The notes below the pieces were generated by a model. It did no database searches. It saw only the letters and a program-made list of their open reading frames with translations, and was not told the origin of the DNA. Positions 6,051-31,153 of a stretch of DNA of 32,142 bases are shown piece by piece; the stretch's first letter is position 1, and every line of letters starts with the position of its first letter. The translations under genes and the position numbers were made by a program. The stretch is from positions 1 to 32,142 of the forward strand of contig JAJFJL010000032.1 of the NCBI GenBank assembly GCA_021774055.1, given 5' to 3'. The stretch comes from Nitrosomonas sp. (GTDB taxonomy: Bacteria > Pseudomonadota > Gammaproteobacteria > Burkholderiales > Nitrosomonadaceae).

Positions 6051-7226
6051 ATGACAACAACACATATTAATGGAAAAAATTATTCCGAATCACAAATTTT
6101 AAACGCTTTTTTACAGGCGGCAACCTGTCATCAAGCCTCAATTGTTTTTTGGAATGAGCCTAATTCGCAACAACTGTGTTTATTAGTGAATTTTAGCCAA
6201 GCGGTTGCCTGTCAAATTTCAGATAAATTAGCGGCAGGGTTTATTTTTAGTCCTTTTTTATCAACCAATAAAGCCTGTTTTTTTTTACAGGCGGAATTAT
6301 TTTATACCATTGAAAATAAACAATTATTGGAAAAAAGTATTGTAGGTCATGCTAAAAAACAAGCGTTTTTAACTACAGTTATAAATTGTTTAAATCAAGC
6401 CAAAAAAAGCGATTATTTTGTCGGGATAGCCCCCGTGGATAGCTCAGCTGATCTTAAAGCCTGTTTTATTGCCTTAGTTAAGCAAGGTTTGAGAGAAATT
6501 AAAAATTCAGCATTTGAAAAAATTGTTTTTGCGCGGACTAAAACCATTAAATTACCCGATAATTTTGATTTAATCTCTACTTTTCAACGAATTCGGCAAA
6601 CGTATCCCCAACATTTTATTTCATTGATTTCAACGGCAGACTATGGATCATGGCTGGGATGTAGCCCTGAATTATTACTTGCCATTGAAGGTTTAGCCTT
6701 ACAAACAGTATCATTAGCTGGGACAAAACTAAACACACAGGCGTGGACAGAAAAGGAATATCAAGAGCAGGCATTAGTCACTGAGTTTATTAGACAACAA
6801 TTACATCAACTTACGATTATGGATGTTGAAGAAATGCCGCCGACTAATTTGACAATTGGTGCATTTAAACATTTACAAACGCAATTTAAAATTCATTTAA
6901 ATTCACAACAATCGCTTAATCAAACGGCGGAACGTTTGTTAGCGTTATTACACCCCACCCCTGCGGTTTGTGGAATGCCCAAACAAGAGGCTTTAGATTT
7001 TATCCAGCAGCATGAAAGTTTTGATCGACAATTATATTGTGGTTATTTAGGCCCTTGTAATATTGATAAGGGAAAAATTCAATTATATGTCAACATTCGT
7101 TGTTTGCAACTAGTCACTCATCATGCGATTTTATATGCAGGTGCAGGGATTACCGAGGCTTCTGATCCTGAAAAGGAATGGGAAGAGACCGAGTTAAAAT
7201 GCCAAACCTTATTGGATTTTTTATAA
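6051..7226 (+). CDS. menF: MenF, isochorismate synthase
   Basis: A 391-residue chorismate-binding enzyme that converts chorismate to isochorismate, the first committed step of menaquinone synthesis. The C-terminal catalytic domain is clear: EKIVFART with the general-base lysine at about residue 157, CSPELLLAIEG near 209, VSLAGT near 220, HPTPAVCGMPKQEALDFI near 304, FDRQLYCGYLGP, and AGAGITEASDPEKEWEETE holding the Mg-binding glutamates. The residues favour isochorismate synthase over anthranilate or aminodeoxychorismate synthase. The start at 6051 overlaps a short upstream reading frame by one base (TAATG). The stop codon directly abuts the menD ATG, indicating translational coupling in a men operon. 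Confidence 0.92.
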   Translation: MTTTHINGKNYSESQILNAFLQAATCHQASIVFWNEPNSQQLCLLVNFSQAVACQISDKLAAGFIFSPFLSTNKACFFLQAELFYTIENKQLLEKSIVGHAKKQAFLTTVINCLNQAKKSDYFVGIAPVDSSADLKACFIALVKQGLREIKNSAFEKIVFARTKTIKLPDNFDLISTFQRIRQTYPQHFISLISTADYGSWLGCSPELLLAIEGLALQTVSLAGTKLNTQAWTEKEYQEQALVTEFIRQQLHQLTIMDVEEMPPTNLTIGAFKHLQTQFKIHLNSQQSLNQTAERLLALLHPTPAVCGMPKQEALDFIQQHESFDRQLYCGYLGPCNIDKGKIQLYVNIRCLQLVTHHAILYAGAGITEASDPEKEWEETELKCQTLLDFL

Positions 7227-8930
7227 ATGTCTAAGACTTATTTAGAATCCATTATGAACATTGCCGAGATTTGTGCGCGGCTAGGGGTGGAAGATGCGAT
7301 TCTTTCCGCAGGTTCACGTTGCGCACCGTTGGTGATTGCCTTTAATCGCCATCCTAATATAAAGGTAAACACTGTTGTTGATGAACGCGCAGCTGCTTTT
7401 ATTGCGTTAGGTATTGCTCAGCAAAAACAAAGTCCTGTGGTTATCGTGTGTACCTCAGGAACTGCAGCATTAAATTATTGCCCAGCGATTGCCGAAGCGT
7501 ATTATCAAACGATTCCCTTAATTGTTTTTACCTGCGACCGTCCTCCCGAATGGATTGGACAGCAAGATGGACAAACCATTAATCAAGTAGGCATTTATCA
7601 AAATTACGTCAAAGCAAGTTATAACTTACCTGTTGATAATCATCATCCTGACTCTATTTGGCATATTGAGCGAACAGTGGCCGAAGCCGTTAATTTAGCC
7701 ATGAGCCCCGCTTTTGCACCCGTGCATTTAAATCTGCCTTTTCGAGAGCCTTTTTATCCACAAGCTCAACAAACGATTGGGTTTAATCCTAAGATAAAAA
7801 TCATTCAACAATTAAATAGCCAAGCGGTATTAAATGAAACGCAATGGCAGTCGCTTATCGGTGAGCTTAAGCAAGCGAAACGTATTTTAATTGTCGTGGG
7901 ACAGCAATTTTTAGATTACAAACAATTATCCTGTTTAAATCAATTAAATATCACTGTTATCGGGGATATTATTTCCAATGTACACGGCATAGAACCATTG
8001 ATTCAGCATAGCGATAATTTTTTAAGTGCTATTGATGAAACCACTCAACAACAGCTACGCCCTGATTTATTAATTAGCTTTGGGCAATCCATCATTTCCA
8101 AGAATCTTAAATTGTATTTAAGAGCGTATCCTGCAAACCAGCATTGGCATTTACAAGTAGCAGGGCAGGTGGCTGATAGCTATCAATCGTTAACTCAAAT
8201 CATTCGCATCAATCCAGTTGATTTTTTTAATCGACTAAAGCAACAGGATTTAGTCGCCATTGACCCTAGTTATCAAACTGGATGGCGTATTTTAGAAGAT
8301 AAAGCCCAAGCATTATTAAACACATTTTTTATTAAACAAGTATTTAACGAATTTTTAGCGGTTAAAACACTGATGGATTCATTGCCTAAACGGTGTTTAT
8401 TGCATTTAGGTAATAGTATGCCGATTCGTTATGCAAACTTAGTGGGTTTAAATAAAAAAGAGAGCGTCGTTTATGCTAATCGTGGTACATCGGGTATTGA
8501 TGGCTGTATGAGTACTGCGGCAGGTCATAGTTTGGCGAGTGATTTATTGAATATTCTTATTATTGGTGATATAAGTTTTTTTTATGATAAAAATGCACTC
8601 TGGCATAACTCAAGCCCTTTAAACTTAAGAATTGTATTATTAAATAATCAGGGGGGAGGAATTTTTGATATTCTTCCCGACTCACGGCAATTACCTGAAT
8701 TAAATGACTGCTTTATTACTCCGCATCAATTAACTGCTAAAAACACCGCTGATGATTTTGGCTTAGAGTATTACTCGTGCGATAATTTGGCTCAATTGCA
8801 CAACATCCTAAACCATTTTTTTAGACCCGCTAAACAATCAAAACTTTTAGAGATTAATACAAAAATTAATACCAATAGCCTGATTTTTAAAGATTTTAAA
8901 CAACAATGGAAACAGGTTTATGCAAACTAA
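7227..8930 (+). CDS. menD: MenD, SEPHCHC synthase (thiamine diphosphate-dependent)
   Basis: A 567-residue ThDP enzyme that adds succinic semialdehyde, from 2-oxoglutarate, to isochorismate, giving SEPHCHC. The N-terminal pyrimidine-binding domain shows [14 protein letters not shown] (27-40), [13 protein letters not shown] with the ThDP-activating glutamate at about 53, [14 protein letters not shown] and [19 protein letters not shown]. The C-terminal pyrophosphate-binding domain has [34 protein letters not shown] and [14 protein letters not shown], the GD...NN metal and diphosphate site. Length fits the family (about 555-570). The classical GSRSTPL stretch reads GSRCAPL here, a mild variation. 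Its start directly follows the menF stop, and its end overlaps menB by 11 bp. Confidence 0.95.
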
Positions 8931-9744
8931 TGTGGCTTGGAAAACAATCAAAAGTTATCAAGAAATTTTATTTCAATATTACCAAGGCATCGGTAAAATT
9001 AGTATTAACCGCCCTCATAAACATAATGCGTTCACCCCGTTAACGATTCAAGAAATGTTAGATGCAGTAGCACTTTGTCGTGAAAATAAAGACATTGGGG
9101 TTGTAGTCATTACAGGCGAAGGCGGGAAGGCTTTTTGTAGTGGTGGTGATCAATCTGTGCGTGGTGACGGGGGATATTTAGGTGACGATGAAGTCCCACG
9201 TTTGAATGTCTTAGACTTACAAAAACAAATCCGCTCTTTGCCTAAACCTGTGGTTGCAATGGTCGCAGGTTGGGCAATAGGCGGCGGCCATGTTCTGCAT
9301 GTGATTTGTGATTTAACCATTGCCGCTGATAATGCACGCTTTGGGCAGACAGGGCCTAATGTAGGCTCTTTTGATGGCGGCTTTGGTGCATCTTATTTAG
9401 CACGGATTGTTGGACAGAAAAAAGCCCGTGAGATTTGGTTTTTATGCGATCAATATGATGCTGAAGAAGCCTTAACGATGGGATTGGTGAACAAGGTTGT
9501 TCCATTAGATCAATTAGAAGAAACCACGCTAGCATGGTGCCAAAAAATGCTAAAAAAATCACCGATAGCGTTGCGATTATTAAAATCAGCATTTAATGCT
9601 GAGTTAGATGGACAAGCGGGTATTCAAGAATTAGCAGGAAATGCAACCTTATTATATTACTTAACCGAAGAAGCCAAAGAAGGTAAGCAGGCCTTTTTAG
9701 AAAAACGCGAGCCTGACTTTAGCCAGTACCAAAAATTTCCCTAA
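8920..9744 (+). CDS. menB: MenB, 1,4-dihydroxy-2-naphthoyl-CoA synthase
   Basis: A 274-residue crotonase-fold enzyme that closes the second ring of the naphthoquinone from o-succinylbenzoyl-CoA. It is very close to the E. coli type: [38 protein letters not shown] (oxyanion-hole region), [40 protein letters not shown] and the C-terminal [20 protein letters not shown]. The QTGP segment is that of the bicarbonate-dependent class of MenB. The start overlaps the last codons of menD, so the two are probably translationally coupled. In E. coli menH lies between menD and menB; here there is no space for it. Confidence 0.96.
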
Positions 9745-9758
9745 ATACTATTTAAAAC

Positions 9759-9992
9759 GTGACAGATGTCGGTAAAAGTCATATTTGTGTTGATTTTGAA
9801 CCTGGCCTGGCTAATATGCCCTTAGGTAGCGTTGTTTTAGGATTAACGGATAATGGTGGTGGAATCTTTGCTATCGTAGGACTTAGTAAAAAGTATTACA
9901 TCCAGCAGGGTATGGGATTGGTTAAGCATCGACATCGGCAAGATCTTCTGGGAAAGCAATATTGGTTTCTTGTGACAGCCCTTTATAACTAA
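9759..9992 (+). CDS. Doubtful 77-codon reading frame between menB and menC
   Basis: A GTG-started frame of 77 codons fills the 274 bp between menB and menC. It encodes CVDFEPGLANMPLGSVVLGL and a glycine-rich stretch (TDNGGGIFAIVGLS), then a basic, Tyr/His-containing tail. I do not recognise it. No Shine-Dalgarno sequence precedes the GTG. It could be an unannotated small protein of the men operon, the decayed remnant of a gene lost from this position, or chance. The otherwise tight spacing of this operon makes a purely empty gap here slightly odd. Confidence 0.25.
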   Translation: MTDVGKSHICVDFEPGLANMPLGSVVLGLTDNGGGIFAIVGLSKKYYIQQGMGLVKHRHRQDLLGKQYWFLVTALYN

Positions 9993-10018
9993 TGTATTTA
10001 AAACTGTGAGCATAACTT

Positions 10019-11083
10019 ATGCTATTAGCCACTTGGCATCAACACAATTTGCAGTTTAAACGTCCCATAACCACCTCTCGTGATACCTTAACACAAAAAC
10101 CTAGTTGGTTTCTATTGCTTAAAGAGACGAAGACGCTAAAAATAGGGATCGGTGAATGCAGTCCTTTAGCAGGATTAAGTATTGATGATTTAACACAGTT
10201 TGAAAACAAATTAACAGAAGTTTGTCAGGAAATAAATGCTTACCAAACTAATTTTTTGAAAACACTACAGACCTTTCCTGCGATTCAATGTGGCTTAGAA
10301 AATGCGTTATTAGCCTTAGAATCTAAAGAAAACACTCTCTTTACAACGCCGTTTACGCAAGGTAAACAAGTCATCCCGATTAATGGATTGATTTGGATGG
10401 CATCTAAAGCGAACATGTTACAACAAATCAACAAAAAATTAGCTCAAGGTTTTAAGTGTTTAAAACTTAAAATTGGCGCACTTGATTTTGAAGAAGAATA
10501 TGGTTTATTAAGGACAATTCGTCGGCAATATTCCGTTGATGATATTGAGATTCGTGTGGATGCGAATGGAGCCTTTCATCAAGATCACGCTTTGGAAAAA
10601 TTACAACGTTTAGCAGATTTACAACTTCATTCGATTGAACAACCAATTGCCGCAGGACAATTTGAAACTATGGCAGAATTGGTTGAGAAGAGCCCGTTGC
10701 CGATTGCCCTAGATGAAGAGCTTATTGGTCTTTATCAGCAACACAAACGAATAGAATTACTGGACTGTATTCAACCCGATTATATTATTTTGAAACCCAG
10801 TTTTTTAGGTGGCTTTTATCAAACAAAACAATGGATAACCTTAGCTCAGCAACGTAATATGAAATGGTGGATTACTTCGGCACTAGAATCAAATTTAGGG
10901 TTGAATGTACTCGCTCAATGGACTTCAACTTTAAACAACCCGCTTCCCCAAGGATTAGGAACAGGTTTACTTTATAGTAATAATTTACCTTCGGCATTAT
11001 CAATTCACCGTGGGGAACTGCATTTTTCCCCCGATTATCCGCTTAACGAAGCATGGAACACCTTTTTTAATGCTAAGGTCTAG
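10019..11083 (+). CDS. menC: MenC, o-succinylbenzoate synthase
   Basis: A 354-residue enolase-superfamily enzyme that dehydrates SHCHC to o-succinylbenzoate. The acid/base lysine pair lies in CLKLKIGALDFEEEY (K149-x-K151). The metal ligands follow in order: DANGAF (D181), EQPI (E207) and DEEL (D232). The second catalytic lysine is in YIILKPSFLGG (K259). The N-terminal capping domain begins ATWHQHNLQFKRPITTSRDT, typical of the gammaproteobacterial MenC. ATG at 10019 gives the expected N-terminus. The 3' end overlaps menE by 14 bp. Confidence 0.93.
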   Translation: MLLATWHQHNLQFKRPITTSRDTLTQKPSWFLLLKETKTLKIGIGECSPLAGLSIDDLTQFENKLTEVCQEINAYQTNFLKTLQTFPAIQCGLENALLALESKENTLFTTPFTQGKQVIPINGLIWMASKANMLQQINKKLAQGFKCLKLKIGALDFEEEYGLLRTIRRQYSVDDIEIRVDANGAFHQDHALEKLQRLADLQLHSIEQPIAAGQFETMAELVEKSPLPIALDEELIGLYQQHKRIELLDCIQPDYIILKPSFLGGFYQTKQWITLAQQRNMKWWITSALESNLGLNVLAQWTSTLNNPLPQGLGTGLLYSNNLPSALSIHRGELHFSPDYPLNEAWNTFFNAKV

Positions 11084-12164
11084 TTTATTACTCAATGGTC
11101 AGTGTTATAAACAGGCTAAATTAATCAACTTATGCCAACATAAAATAACAAGTAATCACCTTGCAGATTGGGAAAGGAATCTGTATTTATTTATTCAGCA
11201 ATGGCTGGATAATACTCAGACGATCGCTATAAAAACCTCAGGTTCAACAGGTACTGCAAAAACGATTAACGTGTTTAAATCTGCAATGAGGCAGTCCGCA
11301 CAGATGACAGGACAGTATTTCCAACTTAAACCCAATGATAATGCGTTACTGTGTTTGCCAACCACCTATATTGCAGGACAAATGATGGTGGTTCGTGCGT
11401 TTGTTTTAGGATTAAATTTAATCCCTATTCGACCTAATGCTATTTCATTTGGCGCATTTAATCAGTGTATTGATTTTGTCGCCATGCTGCCATTACAACT
11501 TTATCAGCTCTTAGCATCAAACCCCACTTTAGAAAAGTTTAAAACGATCAAAACGGTATTAATCGGGGGAGCGAGTGTAAGTCTAAAAAGTTTACATGCG
11601 ATCCAAAACTTAACAACAAAGGTTTATCAAAGCTATGGAATGACTGAAACTGTTAGCCACATTGCTATTCGCTGTTTAAATTCACCACAAGAATTAACTT
11701 ATAGCGTATTAGAAGGGATTCAAATTAAACAAGACATGCAAGGGCGTTTAGTTATCCACGCGCCACATTTAGGCGTTCATCAATTAAAAACCCATGATGT
11801 GATTAGACTGCATTCAAAGAATCAATTTGAGTTATTAGGACGTATTGATAACATCATTAATTCAGGGGGAATAAAATTTAACCCTGAACAATTAGAAGCT
11901 CAAATAGAGCGCTTTATCCCAACACGGCGTTTTTTTATTAGTGGGGTTGACGATGAAAAGTTAGGCAGTAAGTTAGTTTTATGGATAGAAGGTCAGCCTT
12001 TTACATTGCTTGAAATGAAAACACTTCAAGATCAAATTAGTCATCAGTTAGATAAGTATCAGCAACCTAAAGTAATTCGTTTTCTAAATCAATTTAAACA
12101 AACGCCAACAGGTAAAATTCAGCGCAAGATAAATTTAGCAGCAGCTCTATCCGATATAAAATAG
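11070..12164 (+). CDS. menE: MenE, o-succinylbenzoate--CoA ligase
   Basis: A 364-residue member of the ANL adenylate-forming family that activates o-succinylbenzoate as its CoA thioester. The ATP-binding P-loop reads KTSGSTGTAKTI (55-66). Downstream are TVLIGGASVS, VYQSYGMTETVSHIAIR (aromatic/TE motif), GRIDNIINSGGIKFNPEQLE (hinge region) and PTGKIQRKIN with the C-terminal catalytic lysine. I chose ATG 11070, giving MLRSSLLLNGQ and a 14 bp overlap with menC. The longer in-frame start at 11010 would add residues read inside menC that have no family counterpart. It is the last gene of the men cluster; a 113 bp gap follows. Confidence 0.92.
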   Translation: MLRSSLLLNGQCYKQAKLINLCQHKITSNHLADWERNLYLFIQQWLDNTQTIAIKTSGSTGTAKTINVFKSAMRQSAQMTGQYFQLKPNDNALLCLPTTYIAGQMMVVRAFVLGLNLIPIRPNAISFGAFNQCIDFVAMLPLQLYQLLASNPTLEKFKTIKTVLIGGASVSLKSLHAIQNLTTKVYQSYGMTETVSHIAIRCLNSPQELTYSVLEGIQIKQDMQGRLVIHAPHLGVHQLKTHDVIRLHSKNQFELLGRIDNIINSGGIKFNPEQLEAQIERFIPTRRFFISGVDDEKLGSKLVLWIEGQPFTLLEMKTLQDQISHQLDKYQQPKVIRFLNQFKQTPTGKIQRKINLAAALSDIK

Positions 12165-21305: not shown

Positions 21306-22756
21306 CTAAGTTGACAATAAATTCACCATGATTCGCTGCTTTGGCAAGGGAAACAACTGGAGTAGTTTTGTAAACTTCTCCCATGTGTAACAACCTCGTT
21401 TTCCGCGTCTATTTAGCCATTTAAACAGCGTTTGCGTTACTAAAACTACTGATACATTTGCTATCATCTGTTACTCCATAATAAGCAAAATGCCCACGCA
21501 ACTTAGCTGCGCTCGTTTTCATGATTTCAGCTGTAGTTAATGTCCTGTTTGACCTTAACCACTGCTTAAAACCAATTAGCTTAACTGTGAAACGTTTGCT
21601 AATGGTCTTTCGTTTCATCCGAAAACGTCTGCCATCTAGACTACGGGAACAGTAATGCGTAAACCCCAGAAAATCAAAAGTCGCAACCCGCTCTCCTCTG
21701 GCTTTTGCTTTTTGTTGGGCAAAAACTCCAAATTCAAGTAGCTTGGTCTTTTCAGGGGCAACTTCAAGATTAAATTGCTTAAGCCGTGCTTGCATGAAGT
21801 GTTGTGCATCTGCAGTCTGCTGAAAACAGACAACGTAGTCATCCGCGTATCTTATCAGTCTTGCAAACCCTTGATATTCATGCTTAACACGCTTTTCAAA
21901 CCATAGATCAAGTACATAATGAAGATAAATATTGGCAAGAAGTGGCGATATAACACCACCTTGCGGTGTACCATTTTCACTAGCCTTATATTTACCATCT
22001 TCTTGCATTCCCGCTTTTAAAAAGCGCTTGATCATTCTGAGTATCCGTTTGTCCGCTATTCAATGTCTGATAAATGCCATTAATTGTTCTTGATCAACAT
22101 TATCAAAGAAGCTAGGACTTACGCATTGACAAAATTATATACTTTCTAATCAGCTAGTTGATACATGCAAAGAAAATCAAAAAGTAAATTTTCATATACC
22201 TAACTTATTGATAAATCAATATTCTTATTTGTCAATGCGTAAGTCCTAGAAGCCTTTTATGTCTGCTTCGACGATGACATTGATTGGTTCACCTTCGACG
22301 CTCTGACTTAACGCTCGAAGTGCATCATGACATCCACGTCCAGGTCTGAAACCATAAGAGTCATCAATAAAGTATTGTTCATAGATCGCTTGTAAGATCT
22401 TAACTAGACCGGCTTGCACTAGTTTATCTTCTAACGTTGGGATACCAAGTGGTCGCTGTTTATGGCTGCCCGACTTAGGTATGTAGATTCTTAGCACGGG
22501 TTGTGGCTTATATGCCATTTGATGCAGACGTGATACCCAATCTATCAAGGTTCGCATCTAAATCATCGGCATATTCTGCCTTGGTTATGTTATCTATGCC
22601 TGACGCTGCATTTACTTTCAGCTGCGAAAAACATTCCAGCAATAAGCTTTTGTTCATCAGATGAAATAAACTGGTGAATTTAAATTGCTTATCTACTCTG
22701 GCCTTATTGGCTATGCGTTTTAGTTTTGTTGCCACGGTTTGTTCGTTTCTGTGCAC
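21306..22756 (-). pseudogene. Group II intron reverse transcriptase/maturase, multiply disrupted
   Basis: The protein reads in pieces. 22756-22508 gives the N-terminal domain (SGIDNITKAEYADDLDANLD). A single extra G near 22540 shifts the frame, and 22557-22246 continues with RIYIPKSGSHKQRPLGIPTL, YGFRPGRGCHDALRAL and EADIKGF. A 136 bp insertion then interrupts GFFDNVD. After it an in-frame TGA replaces the expected arginine codon in IRHRIADKR, and 22035-21421 carries GTPQGGVISPLLANIYLHYV and the catalytic RYADDYVV. A further frameshift near 21430 moves the maturase tail (FKWLNRRGKRGCYTWEKF) to another frame, ending at 21306. No endonuclease domain follows. No functional maturase can be made from this copy. 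Confidence 0.9.
22113..22248. repeat. 136 bp MITE-like insertion inside the intron reverse transcriptase
   Basis: Perfect 21 bp terminal inverted repeats (TAGGACTTACGCATTGACAAA at the left end, reverse complement at the right) bound an AT-rich non-coding core. GAAGC flanks it on both sides (22108-22112 and 22249-22253), a 5 bp target duplication. Removing the element and one GAAGC restores the reverse transcriptase codons for DIKGFFDNVD exactly. The terminal repeats suggest mobilisation by a DDE transposase encoded elsewhere. Confidence 0.92.
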
Positions 22757-23237
22757 GATTTTTGTGTCCTTAAAACGCTGTTGTTATTGTAATGGCCTTT
22801 CCTCCTGATGCATTACACATCTATCAACGGTACTACGCCATCGTCCGACTTCCCAAGTAGCATCAGTTGCCCTTGCTTTATTATCACTTGTTCAACCTAC
22901 TCTCACATTTGAAAGACCACTTGGGATCTCCCGAGTTGCCGATTATTCCTAATGTCCAACATGCCATGCTTTACAACCCCGGAGCAGCTTTATGATACTT
23001 GTCTCTCGTATCATAAAATGGAGGCTTCCAGAAGGGGTACGCTGTCGCCCTGCTCGTGTGAAAACTTTCGAGGCTAAATCACTTCAACTTTTTCGTTTAC
23101 GGCCTATTGGCTTACGCCCATCGTGCTTAACATTTGGAGTTGCCTCCGCCTGCCCGATGCTTGCTATCCAGTGGCTGACCTACCTTGCCGGAACGGGATT
23201 CACACCCGCTGGAATTATCGACCTTGCTCGGCCGCAC

Positions 23238-23248
23238 ACCCCTTATTT
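23238..23248 (+). repeat. ACCCCTTATTT motif abutting the intron 5' boundary
   Basis: These 11 bases directly adjoin the first intron nucleotide at 23237. The same 11 bases occur in the peroxidase pseudogene (reverse complement at 24225-24235) and again at 24273-24283. Confidence 0.7.
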
Positions 23249-23336: not shown

Positions 23337-24260
23337 CTAGTCTGCAACTGGTAAGCCGCTTGGCAGTTGTTTTGGTACATCACGACGCAAATCGGTACAA
23401 CCAACATCAGTCAAACCAACTATTAAGAACTCTAGTAGATCCGATATTTCACTATTTGTTAGGTCAATTGACTCCAATTCATTGGCGTTAGCAATAGCCT
23501 GACGAATACTTGCATCATTATGTGCAATAAAATCTAGTTGATCTAGGTCATCTCTAGAAACTAGTAATGCTTGAGTTGTGTCGTAATTATTTAATGCTTC
23601 CACTGGATTTAAGTGATGGCGCACAACTGCTTCCAGACTATTGTAAGCACCATCATGTCCCCATGGCCCAGTAAATGCAACTTGACGTAGCGTAGGTGTA
23701 CGAAATTTATAACGATCAACAATCTCTCCAGTTACACGTTCACGACCAAAGTCCTCATGACCGTTTAAACCATCACCCTTGCCAGGACCAATCTGAGGCA
23801 TAGCAATTGCATGGTATTTATTGTCGGTCTGGAATAACCCTGTATGACAGGTAGAGCAGCTAGCTTTGCCATAAAATAATTCACCACCCCTAAGCACTTT
23901 AGAACTTATCGTGTCTAGAGAACCTGTTCTAACAAACTGGTCAAATGGAGAGTTATCACATTTCCACGCAGTTGCTTCAAATTCAGCGATAGCATTTGCA
24001 GCATGTACAAAGGTGATATCAGTAGCCGTATTGACATCATCAAAGGCATCAATAAATAACTCTACATATTCACTATTGGTACGCAAACGATCCGCTAGTT
24101 GCACCCATACACCATCTGGACCAGCAAGATTACCTTGTGCTGTAGCATCGGCAATTGAGTTTTCACCTGGCTGGCCAGCCATTTCTGCAGCTGAAGTCAC
24201 TGGAAACATAGACTGTACTGAATAAAATAAGGGGTCATGTGTATTTTTCAATATTATCAT
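23337..24260 (-). pseudogene. Di-heme cytochrome c peroxidase/MauG family, N-terminal heme domain lost
   Basis: The frame encodes the C-terminal half of a bacterial di-heme cytochrome c peroxidase. Family sequence begins at once (DPLFYSVQSMFPVTSAAEMA, about residues 9-28) and includes ELFYGKASCSTCHTGLFQTD with one heme site CSTCH (135-139). FRTPTLRQVAFTGPWGHDGA and VVRHHLNP, typical of the electron-transferring domain, follow. The first heme-binding CxxCH, the signal peptide and roughly 100-150 residues are absent, so the ORF's first residues (MIILKNTH) are read from foreign DNA. The family is periplasmic; without a signal this product would not be exported or loaded with heme. The break coincides with an inverted repeat at 24225-24283. 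Confidence 0.85.
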
Positions 24261-24424: not shown

Positions 24425-26587
24425 TTAATCAATCACCCTCTGCAACTCTGCATCTGCCCAACGCAGATGTTCACTCAGGGCTTGACTTAACTCAGTTAAT
24501 ATACTGATCGTTGCTGATGGGCTGTTTTGTTGTAACTTCTCAAAACCTTTTTTATCCAACACATATAATTCAGTATCATGAGTTACTCGCGCATCAGCGG
24601 TTCTTGTACCAGATTGTAAAAAACAAATTTCACCAAAAAAAGTGCCTGTACCAAAAGTTGCCAGGCGTTTGTAGTGGTGGCCACCAAACGGAAGTGTGAT
24701 ATCGACTTCTCCACTTAATATAATAAATAATTCGTCACCGCTATCACCACTGCGAAACAGAATATCTCCCGCTGAATACGTTTGTTTTTTTAACACCTCT
24801 GCCAGTTCAGATAGTTCAGCAGTAGAAAGCTCGTTGAACAATTCTATTTCTTCCAGGTCAACAGCTTGTGTAGGTAGTTGGTGAGGTTTGCCAAGCGACT
24901 CTAACAAAGCATTTTCTGCGTATTCCAGTGACTCGTCAGAATCTATAAAAGTCTTTATCGCAACAGTGGTTCCATGTGGACTTATTTTACGTAAGGTTTT
25001 TTCTACTTTATCACCTAAACCTTCACCGGTACGCACTGTTGCGAAGACTAATTCTCCGCCGTGTGACATAAGCCGAGAAGCCATCTGCTGAAGAATCTTC
25101 GCAGCAGTTAAATCCACTCGAGTTACACGACCCATATCTAAAATTATCCATACTGGCCGATCAAGAGCAGTTTCCATTTCCCCAAACAAAATGTCAACAG
25201 TTCCAAAAAAAAGATTACCTTGTAGTTCATAACGAATAATGCGTTCACCATGCTCTGCTAGTAGATCGCGCTCCGCCTCAGGTCTTCTTCGCAAGGATGC
25301 TCGTTGCGATGCAGTTGATTGGCTATGTATAACAGGAGCTTTAACTTGCGCATGTACAAATTGAAAAACAGCTATCAGAACTCCGGCACCAACTGCAACC
25401 ATAAGGTCATAAACAACTGTCACGATTGTTACCAATACGGCAATTGCGCCATCCATGCGCGTGCTTTTACGACGTAACCAAGCGGGGATATCGCGTTCAA
25501 TTATTCCAACAATTGCAACGTGGAGAATAATTCCTGCAAGCACACTTATCGGTAGATAAGCCGCTGCTGACCCCACCAATAATACAAGCAGTAAGATAGT
25601 GAAACCTGTTGCAACAGCAACCCAATGGCGCCCGCCACTATTAACAGCAATAACCGTTGCTCCAGTACTTCCTGCTCCGGATGTTCCACCTAATAATCCT
25701 GAAAGTATTTGCCCAACACCCTGCCCTATTAATTCTCGCCTGGCATTGTGGCGTTTACCTGTGCTTACATCTGCAACAACTGATGTTAACAGTGTATCAA
25801 GTGAAGCTAGCACCGCAAGTGCCATACTTGCTGCAATAATTATATTCCAGGGTAAACCTTCAAATAGTTTTGTAGAGACACCAATATTAATACTGTCAGG
25901 ACCAGGTAACTGACCGATTACCCAATGGTTTGCAACATCACTTGAAGTTACCCATAACAGAAGATAAAAAGCGACGGTTCCTCCAATCAATCCAGCGACA
26001 GTTCCAGGGATGAAAGGCAACCAGCGAGGAATGAACATCATTGCTACAAACGTTGTTAGCGTGGTTAATATAGGGACATAATGCAAACTATCAAAAAAAG
26101 TTGCGACTTGTGCTCCAGTGGCTGATTCGAGTTGGGAGGAAATCATCAGAAAAGCTGAACCAGTCATGAATCCGGCAACAACTGGGTAGGGAATAAATTT
26201 TATGAGACAACCACCATTGGATAAGCCAATGAGTATCTGAAAAAAACCTGTCAACAACAATATGATCACAAGAACTTCTGGTAACACGTCAGCTTGCATA
26301 CCAGACGCTTGTAAACTCAATAAGGTGCCGCTCAGTAATACCAGCGTAGGACCTGTTGGAGAGCTAACCATTCCACAAGTGCCACCCGCCACACCGGATG
26401 AAAAACTCAATGCAGCAGCAGTAATAAGTCCGGCCAATGCCCCGGTGGCAGCATCACCACCGAATATACTCCATAACGCAACACCAAATGCCATCGCTTG
26501 AGGTAAAACCACAAATGCGGATGCAACTCCGCCCCATATGTCACCTAATTCAGCTCGTCTTGTTATCATGTTTTTTGGATTTATCAA
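24425..26587 (-). CDS. SulP-family anion transporter with STAS and cyclic-nucleotide-binding domains
   Basis: A 720-residue inner-membrane protein in three parts. Residues 1-430 are the SulP membrane domain with about 12-14 hydrophobic segments; recognisable stretches are GGVASAFVVLPQAMAFGVAL, GTCGMVSSPTGPTLVLLSGT and GGTSGAGSTGATVIAVNSGG. A STAS domain follows (about 450-555: RYELQGNLFFGTVDIL, VWIILDMGRVTRVDLTAAKI). The C-terminus is a cNMP-binding domain (about 587-710) with YSAGDILFRSGDSGDELFII and the phosphate-binding cassette FFGEICFLQSGTRTADARV. SulP proteins move sulfate, bicarbonate or other anions; the substrate is not decidable here. A cNMP domain suggests direct gating by cAMP or cGMP. 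It lies 17 bp downstream of the polyphosphate:AMP phosphotransferase gene, so they form an operon. Confidence 0.9.
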   Translation of the reverse strand: MINPKNMITRRAELGDIWGGVASAFVVLPQAMAFGVALWSIFGGDAATGALAGLITAAALSFSSGVAGGTCGMVSSPTGPTLVLLSGTLLSLQASGMQADVLPEVLVIILLLTGFFQILIGLSNGGCLIKFIPYPVVAGFMTGSAFLMISSQLESATGAQVATFFDSLHYVPILTTLTTFVAMMFIPRWLPFIPGTVAGLIGGTVAFYLLLWVTSSDVANHWVIGQLPGPDSINIGVSTKLFEGLPWNIIIAASMALAVLASLDTLLTSVVADVSTGKRHNARRELIGQGVGQILSGLLGGTSGAGSTGATVIAVNSGGRHWVAVATGFTILLLVLLVGSAAAYLPISVLAGIILHVAIVGIIERDIPAWLRRKSTRMDGAIAVLVTIVTVVYDLMVAVGAGVLIAVFQFVHAQVKAPVIHSQSTASQRASLRRRPEAERDLLAEHGERIIRYELQGNLFFGTVDILFGEMETALDRPVWIILDMGRVTRVDLTAAKILQQMASRLMSHGGELVFATVRTGEGLGDKVEKTLRKISPHGTTVAIKTFIDSDESLEYAENALLESLGKPHQLPTQAVDLEEIELFNELSTAELSELAEVLKKQTYSAGDILFRSGDSGDELFIILSGEVDITLPFGGHHYKRLATFGTGTFFGEICFLQSGTRTADARVTHDTELYVLDKKGFEKLQQNSPSATISILTELSQALSEHLRWADAELQRVID

Positions 26588-26604
26588 TAATCACAAACGC
26601 TAAT

Positions 26605-28092
26605 TTATGAATCCAACACCTCTTCCAAACTTTTACACAATATTTTGAGAATTTCTACACGAGCGAACTTTTTATCATTGCCAGGAATAATATGCCATCT
26701 CGAGCCGGCTGTACTTGTGCGGGTTACCATCTCATTGACGGCTTCTTTATAATCATCCCACTTTTCTCTATTTCGCCAATCTTCATCGGTAATTTTATAT
26801 TGTTTCCATGCCACTAGTTCTCGTTCTTTAAAACGTTTTAACTGTTCTTCCTGACTTATATGCACCCAAAATTTATTGACCACTGTGCCATGCGAAAACA
26901 ATTGTTCTTCAAAACTATTAATTTCCTGATAAGCGCGCATCCATTCATTTTCTTTTGCAAATCCTTCGACTCGTTCAACCAATACACGACCATACCAGGA
27001 CCGATCATAAAGTGTCACATAACCAGCTCGTGGAATATGTCGCCAGAAACGCCACAAATAATGTTGAGCAAGTTCTTCATCCGTTGGTGCTGCAACAGAT
27101 ATTGTTCGATACAAACGAGCATCAATTGATGCAGTAACCTGGCGAATAGCTCCACCTTTTCCAGCTGCATCCCAGCCTTCAAATACGGCAACACTGGAAC
27201 ATTGTTTATTACGTGCCTGCCAACTTAGCTTACTCAAACGATTTTGATATTTTGTTAATTGTTTTTTATAATCCTTACGGGAAAGAGATTGTGATAAATC
27301 AACTTGATCTAGAATAGTAATGGTTGCGGATGCCGCTTCGGGGGATAATGGGCTATGGATGCCATCAGGTTCTGTAGAAATCACTTTGTCATTAAGACGT
27401 TGACGTATGGCTTCAATTAGCGTTCGTCCTACTGTCAAATCCCTGTAAAATTTGTCTGATGCTTCAATCAGGTACCACGGGCTTTTTCCACTATCGGTTT
27501 GTCTAATTGCGCTTTCTGAAACTTCGGCGAAACGATTATAACGTTTCGCATACCGTTGCTTCAACGACTCCCCTTTCTTTTTCTTAAATTTCTCATCATC
27601 TTCTCGCAAACGAATAGACTGATCATCTTTGGTGAGATGAAACCAAAATTTAATAACCAAGGCACCGTCTCTGGTTAGTGTATTCTCCAGTTCAACAATT
27701 CGGCTAAGTTCTGTTTCAAACTCTGCATCTTCAATTTTATTAAACACACGATCAACAATAGGATGGGTATACCAGGAACCAAACATAATGCCAATAGTTC
27801 CTCGCGGTGGCAATTTTCGCCAAAAACGCCAAAAATGTGGTCGTTCACTTTCTTCATCAGTATGATCCCAAAAGGCATGAGTCTGGAGACCACGCGTATC
27901 CAGCCACTCATTGAGCCGATTAACAACTTCACCTTTGCCAGCGCCTTCCACACCAGAAATAATAACAATTACCGGCATATTGGAATCTTTTAGTTTGCCT
28001 TGCACATCAAGCAACTGCGTACGAATTTCAGGTTCCTGTTTTTTGTATTCTTCTTTTGATACTTTTCGCCCAAGTTCGACTGCTTCAAACAT
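26605..28092 (-). CDS. pap: Polyphosphate:AMP phosphotransferase (two-domain PPK2)
   Basis: A 495-residue protein made of two tandem PPK2 domains. Such fused proteins are class II PPK2 enzymes that phosphorylate AMP to ADP with inorganic polyphosphate. Domain 1 (about 1-235) has the Walker A-like IISGVEGAGKGEVV (45-58) and RPHFWRFWRKLPPRGTIGIM. Domain 2 (about 265-495) has VFEGWDAAGKGGAI (303-316), HYLWRFWRHIPRAGYVTLYD and RSWYGRVLVERVEGF. The second domain has the more canonical catalytic residues, as is usual in the fused enzymes. It is the first gene of the minus-strand pair with the SulP transporter and is divergent from the cyclase-FHA gene across a 141 bp region. Confidence 0.93.
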   Translation of the reverse strand: MFEAVELGRKVSKEEYKKQEPEIRTQLLDVQGKLKDSNMPVIVIISGVEGAGKGEVVNRLNEWLDTRGLQTHAFWDHTDEESERPHFWRFWRKLPPRGTIGIMFGSWYTHPIVDRVFNKIEDAEFETELSRIVELENTLTRDGALVIKFWFHLTKDDQSIRLREDDEKFKKKKGESLKQRYAKRYNRFAEVSESAIRQTDSGKSPWYLIEASDKFYRDLTVGRTLIEAIRQRLNDKVISTEPDGIHSPLSPEAASATITILDQVDLSQSLSRKDYKKQLTKYQNRLSKLSWQARNKQCSSVAVFEGWDAAGKGGAIRQVTASIDARLYRTISVAAPTDEELAQHYLWRFWRHIPRAGYVTLYDRSWYGRVLVERVEGFAKENEWMRAYQEINSFEEQLFSHGTVVNKFWVHISQEEQLKRFKERELVAWKQYKITDEDWRNREKWDDYKEAVNEMVTRTSTAGSRWHIIPGNDKKFARVEILKILCKSLEEVLDS

Positions 28093-28233
28093 TTCTCCCC
28101 CACCCTGTCGATTAGTGTATGTATTTATTATGGCACTTAACCTAGTTAGTTACCAGTAGAACAAACGATTTGTTGGCTTAACGGATAGATTAATTTATTA
28201 TCTAGAAACATAGTTATAATAAACTACTTAGAT

Positions 28234-29145
28234 ATGGAAAAAACACAAAAAAACTTTGCAGTCCTATTTGCCGATGTTGCCGGTAGCACTCATATTTATG
28301 AAAAATTTGGCGATACAAAAGCCAGCGCAATCATTAACACAACGCTCAATATAATGACTGAAATAGTTGAGCAACATGGTGGTATTTTAATAAAAACTAT
28401 CGGCGATGAAGTTATGTGTCGCTTTGATCACGTAGACAACGCGGTTGAGTCCGCGTGTGAATTCAATGAGCAGTTGGACATAAATCCACCGTTTCAGAAA
28501 ATAATACTCGTCGTAAGAACAGGCATACATTGGGGGCCTGCCCTCCTACAGGAAGATGGTGATCTATTTGGCGATGTGGTCAATGTGGCCGCAAGGATGA
28601 CAGGAATTGCACAGGCAAGACAAATTATTACCACTGAAGACACGGTTTCTCATTTAAACGAACATCTAAAACTTAAGTGCCGTGAATTTGATCGGGCAGA
28701 AGTAAAAGGTAAAGCAGAATCGTTAGTAATATATGAAGTTGTATGGGAACCGCAATATGTAACTCGCCTAGTACCTATTCTGAATATCACACCAAAAGCC
28801 TCAGCTGTTAAACCCCTACTAGTCACCTATCAGGATTTTAAGAAAACAATTTCTAGTGAAACAGGCCCGGTGCTGATGGGCAGAAGTGAACAATGTGACA
28901 TTGTTGTGCAGTCCCCAGTTGCATCCAGAAATCATGCGGCTATTAAGTTCAACAGGGGTAAATTTATTCTTGTGGACCAAAGTACCAACGGCACTTATGT
29001 TTGTTTAAGCGATGGTAAAAAATTCTATCTTCGTCGAGAAAATCTGCCGCTTTCTGGTAGCGGTATAATCAGCTTGGGGGAAGAGTTTGGTGCTGATGAA
29101 ACGCACTATATTCATTTCAAATTTGATGTTGGCTATGCGTTTTAG
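28234..29145 (+). CDS. Class III adenylate/guanylate cyclase fused to an FHA domain; 3' end rewritten
   Basis: A 303-residue soluble protein. The cyclase domain (about 5-170) keeps the catalytic set: LFADVAGST with metal-binding D14, LIKTIGDEVM with K54 and D58, and DLFGDVVNVAARM with D114, N117 and R121. It should therefore make cAMP, or cGMP; K54 and D114 favour ATP. A linker leads to an FHA phosphothreonine-binding domain (about 213-295): MGRSEQCDIVV, SRNHAAIKF, DQSTNGTYV. The last codons (GYAF) and the stop lie in a truncated group II intron copy beginning at 29129, so the native end was lost, probably by only a few residues. A TATAAT at 28215-28220 lies upstream, close to the ATG. Divergent from pap-sulP, whose transporter has a cNMP-binding domain. 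Confidence 0.9.
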   Translation: MEKTQKNFAVLFADVAGSTHIYEKFGDTKASAIINTTLNIMTEIVEQHGGILIKTIGDEVMCRFDHVDNAVESACEFNEQLDINPPFQKIILVVRTGIHWGPALLQEDGDLFGDVVNVAARMTGIAQARQIITTEDTVSHLNEHLKLKCREFDRAEVKGKAESLVIYEVVWEPQYVTRLVPILNITPKASAVKPLLVTYQDFKKTISSETGPVLMGRSEQCDIVVQSPVASRNHAAIKFNRGKFILVDQSTNGTYVCLSDGKKFYLRRENLPLSGSGIISLGEEFGADETHYIHFKFDVGYAF

Positions 29146-29657
29146 TTTTGTTGCCACGGGTTCTTCGTTTCTGTGCACGATTTGTGTGTCCTTAAAACGC
29201 TGTTGTTATTGTGATGGCCTTTCCTCCTGATGCATTACACATCTATCAACGGTACTACGCCATCATCCGACTTCCCAAGTAGCATCAGTTGGTCTTGTTT
29301 TATTATCACTTGTTCAACCTACTCTCACATTTGAAAGATCACTTGGGATCTCCCGAGTTGCCGATTATTCCTAATGTCTAACATGCCATGCTTTACAACC
29401 CCGGAGCAGCTTTATGACACTTGTCTGTCGTATCATAAAATGGAGGCTTCCAGAAGGGGAACTCTGTCGCCCTGCTCGTGCAGAGTCTTTCGAGGCTAAA
29501 TCACTTCAACTCTAGTTTACGGCCTGTTGGCTTACGCCCATCGTGCTTAACATTTGGAGTTGCCTCCACCTGCCCGATGATTGCTATCCGGTGGCTGACC
29601 TGCCTTGCCGGAACGGGATTCACACCCGCTGGAACTATCGACCTTGCTCGGCCGCAC
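29129..29657 (-). mobile_element. Truncated second copy of the group II intron (5' part only)
   Basis: The segment is nearly identical to 22707-23237, with the same orientation and the same 5' end GTGCGGCCGAGCAAGGTCG beginning at 29657. It contains the 5' RNA domains and the first 17 or so codons of the reverse transcriptase (GTGCACAGAAACGAAGAACC onward), then stops abruptly at 29129, where the cyclase-FHA gene begins on the other strand. No domain V, no maturase and no 3' end are present, so it cannot splice or move. The minus-strand 5' exon reads GGGAGTTCTGGGGA, a piece of a REP-like palindrome. Confidence 0.9.
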
Positions 29658-29830
29658 TCCCCAGAACTCCCGGTTTTTTTCAGAAAACAGCACCCAGATT
29701 TACCAATTTAATTTTTATACCATTGTTTTCACAGAATAGTAAGTTTAATTACAGGTGCTGACACTGTAAAATATTGGAAGCTGATTTACAGTAGCATGCA
29801 TGAAACTAAGACTATTTGGAGTAACGATTT

Positions 29831-30817: not shown

Positions 30818-31153
30818 TTATTCTTCAGCTTCATCATCTTCAGCTTCATCATCTTCAGCTTCAGCTTCATCATCGTCTTCAGCTTCATCATCAGCATCGT
30901 CGTCTTCAGATTCGTCACCATCAAATGCTTCTTCTACAGCTTCTTCTACAGCTTCTATTGCTTCTTCAACTGCTTCTTCTATTGTATCCATTACAGTTTT
31001 TTCTTGTTCTGCTGTTTCTTCCAGGGCAGCGTCAAGTTCATCCATTCCTTCACGCTCATCCATGAATCCAGGCGGGTACTGGCCTGGTTTTGGATCACCA
31101 CAAGCGCTTAATGCAAATGCTACAAGGACTGCAGCAATAAGTGAGTATTTCAT
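30818..31153 (-). CDS. Small, extremely acidic lipoprotein with low-complexity tail
   Basis: A 111-residue protein. Residues 1-18 are a lipoprotein signal (MKYSLIAAVLVAFALSAC) with the lipid-anchored cysteine at 18 and GDPKPGQYPPGFMDEREG after it. The middle (about 40-75) is built from Glu/Ala-rich helical repeats (TIEEAVEEAIEAVEEAVEEA). The tail is almost purely Asp, Glu and Ala in repeats of EDDEAE. AAGGAGA six bases before the ATG supports the start. The DNA carries a matching near-perfect repeat of CTTCATCATCTTCAG-like units, which would vary in number by slippage. Function unknown; a highly charged surface tether or a cation-binding role is possible but unproven. Confidence 0.75.
   Translation of the reverse strand: MKYSLIAAVLVAFALSACGDPKPGQYPPGFMDEREGMDELDAALEETAEQEKTVMDTIEEAVEEAIEAVEEAVEEAFDGDESEDDDADDEAEDDDEAEAEDDEAEDDEAEE

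What the first reader, a model, noticed from the sequence alone, without database searches (positions are those of the whole stretch)
24425..29145. Divergent locus linking a cNMP cyclase-FHA protein to a SulP transporter with a cNMP-binding domain and a polyphosphate enzyme
Seen: a class III cyclase with intact catalytic residues and an FHA domain is divergent from an operon of pap and a SulP transporter carrying a C-terminal cNMP-binding domain with a good phosphate-binding cassette. Known: cNMP-binding domains regulate fused effectors, and FHA domains read phosphothreonine. Inference: a kinase signal is sensed by FHA, cNMP is made, and the anion transporter is gated, with Pap recovering the AMP produced when cAMP is broken down. 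This would be a compact signalling-transport module.
Basis: partly seen in the sequence, partly recalled or inferred. Interest (0 to 1): 0.7.

Follow-up and report, generated by a model that had tools for sequence, protein, structure and literature searches.

The report
Cyclase beside nucleotide-sensing anion transporter
A bacterial DNA stretch puts an enzyme that probably makes the messenger cAMP next to an anion transporter with a built-in cAMP-sensing domain and a polyphosphate enzyme; each part is a known kind, but the set may be a small phosphorylation-to-transport circuit.

Summary
Observation confirmed: an intact class III cyclase-FHA gene is divergent from a pap-sulP pair; the SulP has a BicA-like transport domain, STAS and a C-terminal cyclic-nucleotide-binding (CNB) domain with a conserved cassette.

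Interpretation partly supported. Input side strong: cyclase-FHA homologs lie with a PP2C phosphatase or Ser/Thr kinase in 26 of 40 class loci and with PP2C in 25 of 30 phylum loci. Output side weaker: none of those 70 loci has a SulP transporter nearby; 2 of 80 SulP-CNB loci have a cyclase-FHA neighbour, both catalytically degenerate and of another clade. PPK2 is the next gene in 4 of 80 SulP-CNB loci, and pseudo-cyclase-FHA genes sit beside Pap in two genomes: all three pairings recur, each rarely. SulP-CNB genomes are enriched for cyclase-FHA (33 of 50 against 92 of 369) and Pap (27 of 50 against 67 of 369), uncorrected for descent.

Best reading: a loosely linked kinase/phosphatase, FHA-cyclase, cAMP, CNB-transporter circuit, probably moving bicarbonate. 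New variant of known kinds; the coupling is untested.

The parts
24425..26587 (-). SulP anion transporter, 720 aa: BicA-like transport domain (about 15-364), STAS (444-519), C-terminal CNB domain (602-688)
   Evidence: Pfam; closest solved chain BicA 6ki1 143 bits; CNB cassette conserved; AlphaFold2 model mean pLDDT 87.4 with a helical part, a mixed part over STAS and a strand-rich part over the CNB region
26605..28092 (-). Pap, polyphosphate:AMP phosphotransferase (two-domain class II PPK2), 495 aa; 17 nt upstream of sulP on the same strand, likely operon
   Evidence: TIGR03708 674.5 bits over cut-off; two PPK2 stretches
28093..28233 (.). 141-nt divergent intergenic region between pap and the cyclase gene; one weak sigma-70-like site at 28173-28201 (+); no CRP-like match
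   Evidence: scans, (consensus matches only)
28234..29145 (+). class III nucleotidyl cyclase (residues 3-162) with C-terminal FHA domain (214-264), 303 aa; catalytic and phosphothreonine-binding residues kept
   Evidence: Pfam; residue check
22707..23242 (-). left flanking group II intron copy (RF02005 at 22967-23202)
   Evidence: Rfam; repeats 95-96% identical to right copy
29129..29662 (-). right flanking group II intron copy (RF02005 at 29389-29622); the repeat starts at 29129 and so overlaps the last codons of the cyclase gene

Best explanation
The locus encodes a cyclic-nucleotide-gated SulP transporter, probably a Na+-dependent bicarbonate (BicA-like) carrier, together with a cAMP-making enzyme under protein-phosphorylation control. 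A Ser/Thr kinase and PP2C phosphatase encoded elsewhere set the phosphorylation of a target that the FHA domain binds. This places or activates the cyclase, cAMP rises, and cAMP binding to the C-terminal CNB domain changes SulP activity. Pap, in operon with SulP, uses polyphosphate to turn AMP into ADP and is co-expressed with the transporter under the same energy or phosphate condition, rather than being a dedicated recycler of cAMP-derived AMP. Shown by sequence: gene order, domains, residues, recurrent kinase/PP2C context, recurrent but rare PPK2 and FHA-(pseudo)cyclase linkage to SulP-CNB. Inferred: cAMP as the product, binding, gating, substrate, direction of effect, role of Pap.
For: Domains and residues. 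Kinase or PP2C beside cyclase-FHA in 26 of 40 class loci and PP2C in 25 of 30 phylum loci; kinase plus PP2C on G000 contig 28. SulP-CNB genomes: 33 of 50 with cyclase-FHA (32 of the 37 that I counted as gamma-, beta- or unspecified Pseudomonadota) and 27 of 50 with Pap, against 92 of 369 and 67 of 369 in the class sample, own genome included. Within the class sample 13 of 16 SulP-CNB genomes have cyclase-FHA against 78 of 352 others. FHA-cyclase next to SulP-CNB in L198 and L199; PPK2 as next gene in L204, L216, L237 and L259 of 80 loci, plus L146; pseudo-cyclase-FHA next to Pap in L296 and L299. BicA as closest solved relative; carbonic anhydrase in 3 of 128 scanned neighbour genes.
Against: No cyclase-FHA locus in the class set (0 of 40), phylum set (0 of 30, 1.5-kb flanks) or a further set (0 of 20) has a SulP transporter beside it; Pap lies beside it in 0 of 40, 0 of 30 and 2 of 20 (sister genomes). 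The two SulP-adjacent relatives, L198 and L199, lack the catalytic Asn and Arg and fall in another clade than the window protein. Of the 20 best class-level Pap matches only G219's lies beside SulP-CNB. 0 of 10 Zetaproteobacteria with SulP-CNB have cyclase-FHA. The genome has other CNB proteins that could be the cAMP target, and one cyclase-FHA homolog sits with a CRP regulator instead (L156). Co-occurrence tests are not corrected for phylogeny, and neighbourhood expectations are my rough estimates.
Confidence: 0.42

Rival explanations
1. Neighbours without private coupling. The cyclase feeds the general cAMP pool (CRP-type regulators), the SulP CNB domain reads that same pool, and the three genes sit together because of horizontal acquisition and intron-mediated rearrangement.
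For: No match spanning SulP plus CNB, or cyclase plus FHA, in the 99 other family genomes drawn; locus flanked by group II intron copies; adjacency rare; cyclase-FHA with CRP in L156; SulP-CNB without cyclase-FHA in 10 of 10 Zetaproteobacteria.
Against: All three pairwise linkages recur in other genomes, and the genome-level co-occurrence of all three families is above the class background.
Confidence: 0.38
2. The FHA-cyclase family acts on transporters mainly as a phosphothreonine-directed partner protein; cAMP synthesis is secondary or, in one subfamily, lost.
For: SulP- and Pap-adjacent relatives are pseudo-cyclases that keep the FHA residues; other members of that clade or its sister lie beside MFS (L297, L300) and ABC and CorA transporter genes (L295).
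Against: The window protein keeps every catalytic residue checked and the SulP cassette is conserved, which argues for cAMP as output. L298, in the same sister group, lies beside a poly(A)-polymerase-like gene and BacA, not a solute carrier.
Confidence: 0.12
3. The CNB domain is a structural or differently liganded module (for example another nucleotide), and the transporter is not gated by cNMP.
For: CNB domains can bind nucleosides instead of cNMP (trypanosomatid PKA, PMC10959531, start of abstract in a search listing only); the cassette departs in some homologs (E653 in 4 of 42, R662 in 1 of 42).
Against: G, E and R of the cassette are in 42, 38 and 41 of 42 homologs; the best solved CNB matches include cGMP- and cAMP-dependent kinase domains.
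Confidence: 0.08

Closest known systems
BicA-type SulP bicarbonate transporter (SLC26/SulP family)
   Same: Best solved match (6ki1, 143 bits) and best NCBIfam model; equivalents of BicA T69, D258, T262, G300 and T302 are kept (BicA residue numbers recalled, positions read by eye)
   Different: BicA has no CNB domain (recalled); 210.8 bits is far below the BicA equivalog cut-off of 880; A301 equivalent is Ser
SLC9C1 (sperm Na+/H+ exchanger with CNB domain)
   Same: A solute carrier with a CNB domain, modulated by cAMP (PMC6052114, passages read); functional analogue of a cAMP-gated carrier
   Different: Different transporter family, has a voltage sensor, eukaryotic; an analogue, not a relative
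Fungal SLC26/SulP proteins with CNB domain (Aspergillus nidulans Sbt proteins, PMC5541321)
   Same: SulP, STAS and cyclic-nt-binding domains are named in one figure legend of that paper (passages read), so the architecture has probably been annotated before
   Different: Fungal; which protein carries the CNB was not checked; no gene linkage to a cyclase seen in the passages
FHA proteins clustered with Ser/Thr kinase and phosphatase genes
   Same: Such clustering is reported for M. tuberculosis (PMC1262709, passages read); cyclase-FHA shows the same company
   Different: Here FHA is fused to a class III cyclase, and in the window the kinase and phosphatase are absent from the locus

Membership tests
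SulP/SLC26 transporter | Sulfate_transp and STAS domains over cut-off | tested here: met
   131.5 and 33.1 bits
BicA bicarbonate transporter | NCBIfam BicA equivalog cut-off | tested here: not met
   210.8 bits against 880
BicA bicarbonate transporter | Na+/HCO3- site residues | tested here: inconclusive
   T78, D264, T268, G306, T308 kept, A301 equivalent is S307; in 42 homologs D264 is D in 31, N in 11; numbers of BicA recalled
cNMP-binding domain | PF00027 over cut-off and phosphate-binding cassette G-E...R | tested here: met
   68.1 against 27.5 bits; G652, E653, R662
cNMP-binding domain | binds cAMP or cGMP | not testable with these tools
   needs protein
Class III nucleotidyl cyclase | two metal Asp, transition-state Asn and Arg, adenine-specifying Lys/Asp | tested here: met
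   D14, D58, N117, R121, K54, D110; residue roles recalled
FHA domain | GR, SxxH, NG motif | tested here: met
   R217, S231, H234, N252, G253; motif as in PMC1262709
Class II PPK2 / Pap | two fused PPK2 domains, TIGR03708 cut-off | tested here: met
   674.5 against 547.65 bits, two stretches; the stricter NF050016 model is not met (364.7 against 800)
Conserved cyclase-SulP-Pap module | same gene set adjacent in related genomes | tested here: not met
   no other locus seen with all three; pairwise links only
Kinase/PP2C-linked FHA-cyclase | kinase or PP2C gene beside the cyclase-FHA gene | tested here: not met
   typical of relatives (26 of 40; 25 of 30 with PP2C) but not in the window locus; the genome's kinase and PP2C lie on another contig

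The most novel reading that the evidence does not exclude
A bacterial phosphorylation-to-transport switch: a Ser/Thr kinase-PP2C pair controls an FHA-cyclase whose cAMP gates a BicA-like SulP carrier through a built-in CNB domain. FHA-(pseudo)cyclases would then have been recruited to SulP-CNB at least twice, once as an active cyclase (window) and once as a dead one (L198/L199), with polyphosphate enzymes as the third recurrent partner: a prokaryotic counterpart of cAMP-modulated SLC9C1.
Probability: 0.27. Interest if true: 0.7.

Novelty: new variant of a known kind. Interest (0 to 1): 0.42.

Why it matters
Direct cAMP gating of a bacterial secondary transporter, fed by a kinase-controlled cyclase, would join protein phosphorylation, cAMP and inorganic-anion uptake in one short path; CRP-type regulators are the usual bacterial cAMP targets (recalled). 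The family is wide (529 candidate stretches encode a relative of this SulP; not all need have a CNB domain), and I saw no report of a tested bacterial SulP-CNB in my ten searches (open-licence papers, mostly listings). The recurrent PP2C-FHA-cyclase pairing makes the input side directly testable.

Tried and rejected
Mis-binned contig: considered because menD of the window has only distant matches in 24 same-genus genomes (one same-order genome, G489, has a likely homolog); rejected because PotB matches the same genus best and composition is near normal. CRP site in the divergent region: 120 loose matches in the window against 137 expected, none in 28093-28233. Conserved three-gene module: rejected. 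L198/L199 as simple support for cAMP production: rejected after the residue check. Plasmid spread of SulP-CNB: 338 plasmid records match, all under 60% identity, the 30 listed at 30% or less, 3 over at least 80% of the query. Structure: the SulP model came out well, but the fold search could not be run. Literature: ten full-text searches ran (two of them returned no paper); no listed title or abstract start describes this gene set or a tested bacterial SulP-CNB. Only open-licence PMC papers are held, and I opened four of them, as passages only.

Limits: gene calls in relatives are my own simple ORF chains, so some neighbours are missed or wrong. One search scored at most 3 candidates per genome, so SulP-CNB is undercounted there. 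The 80 named loci are the best 80 of 529. Of the neighbour proteins, those under 110 or over 620 aa were left out before the scan of 128, as were six duplicate loci and the window's own. In the SulP tree ten duplicate, truncated or odd loci and any protein under 600 aa were left out; in both trees the window sits in an unresolved part with no starred group of its own. The 92 of 369 and 33 of 50 counts include some matches to one domain only. The 50 genomes are those of loci L190-L239, of 80. The 20 Pap loci were picked after leaving out those already known to lie beside SulP or cyclase-FHA, so they are no unbiased control; the unbiased count is 1 of the 20 best class matches, one of them not examined. 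Kinase and PP2C families were confirmed by Pfam for representatives only.
Full report
What is there. The window is the whole contig C182 of a 3.07-Mb, 84% complete genome. The SulP protein has transport, STAS and CNB domains; Pap is a two-domain PPK2; the third protein is a class III cyclase followed by an FHA domain. Pap and SulP are 17 nt apart on one strand and the cyclase diverges from pap with 141 nt between (coordinates). An AlphaFold2 model of SulP from 42 homologs has mean pLDDT 87.4 and shows a helical membrane part, a mixed part over STAS and a strand-rich part over the CNB region, with weak stretches around residues 521-540. The fold search of that model could not be run.

Residues. 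In an alignment of 43 cyclase-FHA proteins the window protein keeps both metal Asp, the Lys and Asp of adenine choice, and the Asn and Arg of catalysis; all 43 keep the FHA residues (roles of the cyclase residues recalled). Of the 40 class relatives 36 keep all six cyclase residues. The CNB cassette Gly, Glu and Arg occur in 42, 38 and 41 of 42 SulP-CNB homologs. The transport domain is closest to BicA among solved chains, 143 bits over residues 8-400. The equivalents of BicA T69, D258, T262, G300 and T302 are kept and A301 is Ser (positions read by eye; BicA numbers recalled); these sites vary among the 42 homologs. A comparative study finds one group of 700-900 aa SulP proteins inside a BicA clade and calls that clade likely bicarbonate or dicarboxylate carriers (PMC5840216, passages read; it does not mention CNB domains). 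So bicarbonate is a better guess than sulfate, but the BicA equivalog cut-off is not met.

Input side. Of 40 class-level cyclase-FHA loci, 24 carry a Ser/Thr kinase and 19 a PP2C phosphatase within the fetched stretch of 3.7 to 19.5 kb, 26 either (25 and 19 by profile search; representatives confirmed by Pfam). In a second draw at phylum level, 25 of the 30 loci fetched have PP2C within 1.5 kb. The window locus lacks both, but the same genome has a kinase and a PP2C gene together on contig 28. FHA as reader of that phosphorylation is therefore well supported as inference.

Output side. Among 80 named SulP-CNB loci (best 80 of 529 candidates), 69 have at least 1.2 kb upstream and 67 downstream. 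Two have a cyclase-FHA gene next door: L198 on the same strand, L199 divergent. A third, L202, has a response-regulator cyclase 0.9 kb upstream; L206 and L245 have a cyclase 3-4 kb away. L198 and L199 lack the catalytic Asn and Arg and lie in a clade of six pseudo-cyclases (SH-aLRT 99), whereas the window protein lies among mostly intact ones. L296 and L299, in the same clade, sit beside Pap. PPK2 is the next gene of SulP-CNB in L204, L216, L237 (cut by the contig end) and L259 (1.2 kb away), and of a SulP cut off by the contig end in L146; L255 has Pap beside a short SulP fragment and L141 has Pap and PPK1 near SulP-CNB. Against this, no SulP transporter lies by cyclase-FHA in 40 class loci, 30 phylum loci or 20 further loci, and of the 20 best class-level Pap matches one (G219) is beside SulP-CNB, 18 are not, one was not examined. 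Of 128 neighbour proteins scanned, the most frequent families include PPK2 (4), RNB (4), carbonic anhydrase (3) and FHA (3): recurrent, but a small minority.

Rough odds. With about one cyclase-FHA and two PPK2 genes per genome of some 3,200 genes (my estimates), about 0.05 and 0.1 chance neighbours are expected in 80 loci; Poisson tails are. Taken as independent events rather than loci the excess is modest for the cyclase (one event beyond the window, tail about 0.05) and stronger for PPK2.

Genome level. In the class sample 13 of 16 SulP-CNB genomes have cyclase-FHA against 78 of 352 others (Fisher p 1.8e-6, not corrected for descent; 9 of 12 families). Of 50 genomes with the closest SulP-CNB genes, 33 have cyclase-FHA and 27 have Pap; the class sample has 92 and 67 of 369, own genome included. 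Ten Zetaproteobacteria have none of the former. The association follows lineage at least in part.

Origin. None of the 99 other genomes drawn from the same family has a match that spans both halves of SulP-CNB or of cyclase-FHA, so the locus is a recent gain or a rare survivor there. Two group II intron copies, 95-96% alike, flank the block.

How it most likely works. Kinase and phosphatase set a phosphothreonine; FHA binds it; the cyclase makes cAMP; cAMP binds the SulP CNB domain and alters anion transport; Pap shares the operon and ties it to polyphosphate and adenylate balance. These steps are inference from families. The private link between this cyclase and this transporter is about as likely as both simply using the general cAMP pool.

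Comparison. A carrier modulated by cAMP through a CNB domain is known from sperm SLC9C1 (PMC6052114, passages), and CNB-bearing SulP proteins seem to be annotated in fungi (PMC5541321, passages). I saw no report of the bacterial gene set in ten searches, which cover open-licence papers only and were read mostly as listings.

Noticed in passing
window 22707-23242 and 29129-29662: Two group II intron copies on the minus strand flank the MauG-like, SulP, Pap and cyclase genes; the right repeat overlaps the last codons of the cyclase gene.
   Followed up: partly
window 6051-12164: A cluster that reads as menaquinone-type genes; menD (7227-8930) has only distant matches in 24 same-genus genomes, and a likely homolog in one same-order genome, G489.
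   Followed up: partly
L198 9049-9954, L199 8910-9872, L295, L296, L297, L299, L300: Degenerate cyclase-FHA proteins (and L295, which keeps the Arg but not the Lys and Asn) lie beside transporter genes (SulP-CNB, ABC and CorA, MFS) or Pap; six of them form one clade.
   Followed up: partly
L156 8918-10620: Cyclase-FHA (K54 and D110 equivalents changed to Asn) followed by a CRP-type regulator on the same strand.
   Followed up: no
L182 16484-19500: Large secreted-looking proteins (one reads to me like a haemagglutinin-type adhesin) lie near the PP2C-kinase-cyclase-FHA genes; related ORFs occur in 9-10 of the class loci.
   Followed up: no
window 23337-24260 (-): MauG-like di-haem peroxidase ORF whose Pfam match starts at profile position 77, so probably shortened at its N-terminus.
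   Followed up: no
window 30818-31153 (-): Lipoprotein-like ORF with a long acidic E/D/A repeat tail; no Pfam match.
   Followed up: no
L141 6825-14350: SulP-CNB near Pap and PPK1 (polyphosphate kinase 1), with an AAA gene between.
   Followed up: no
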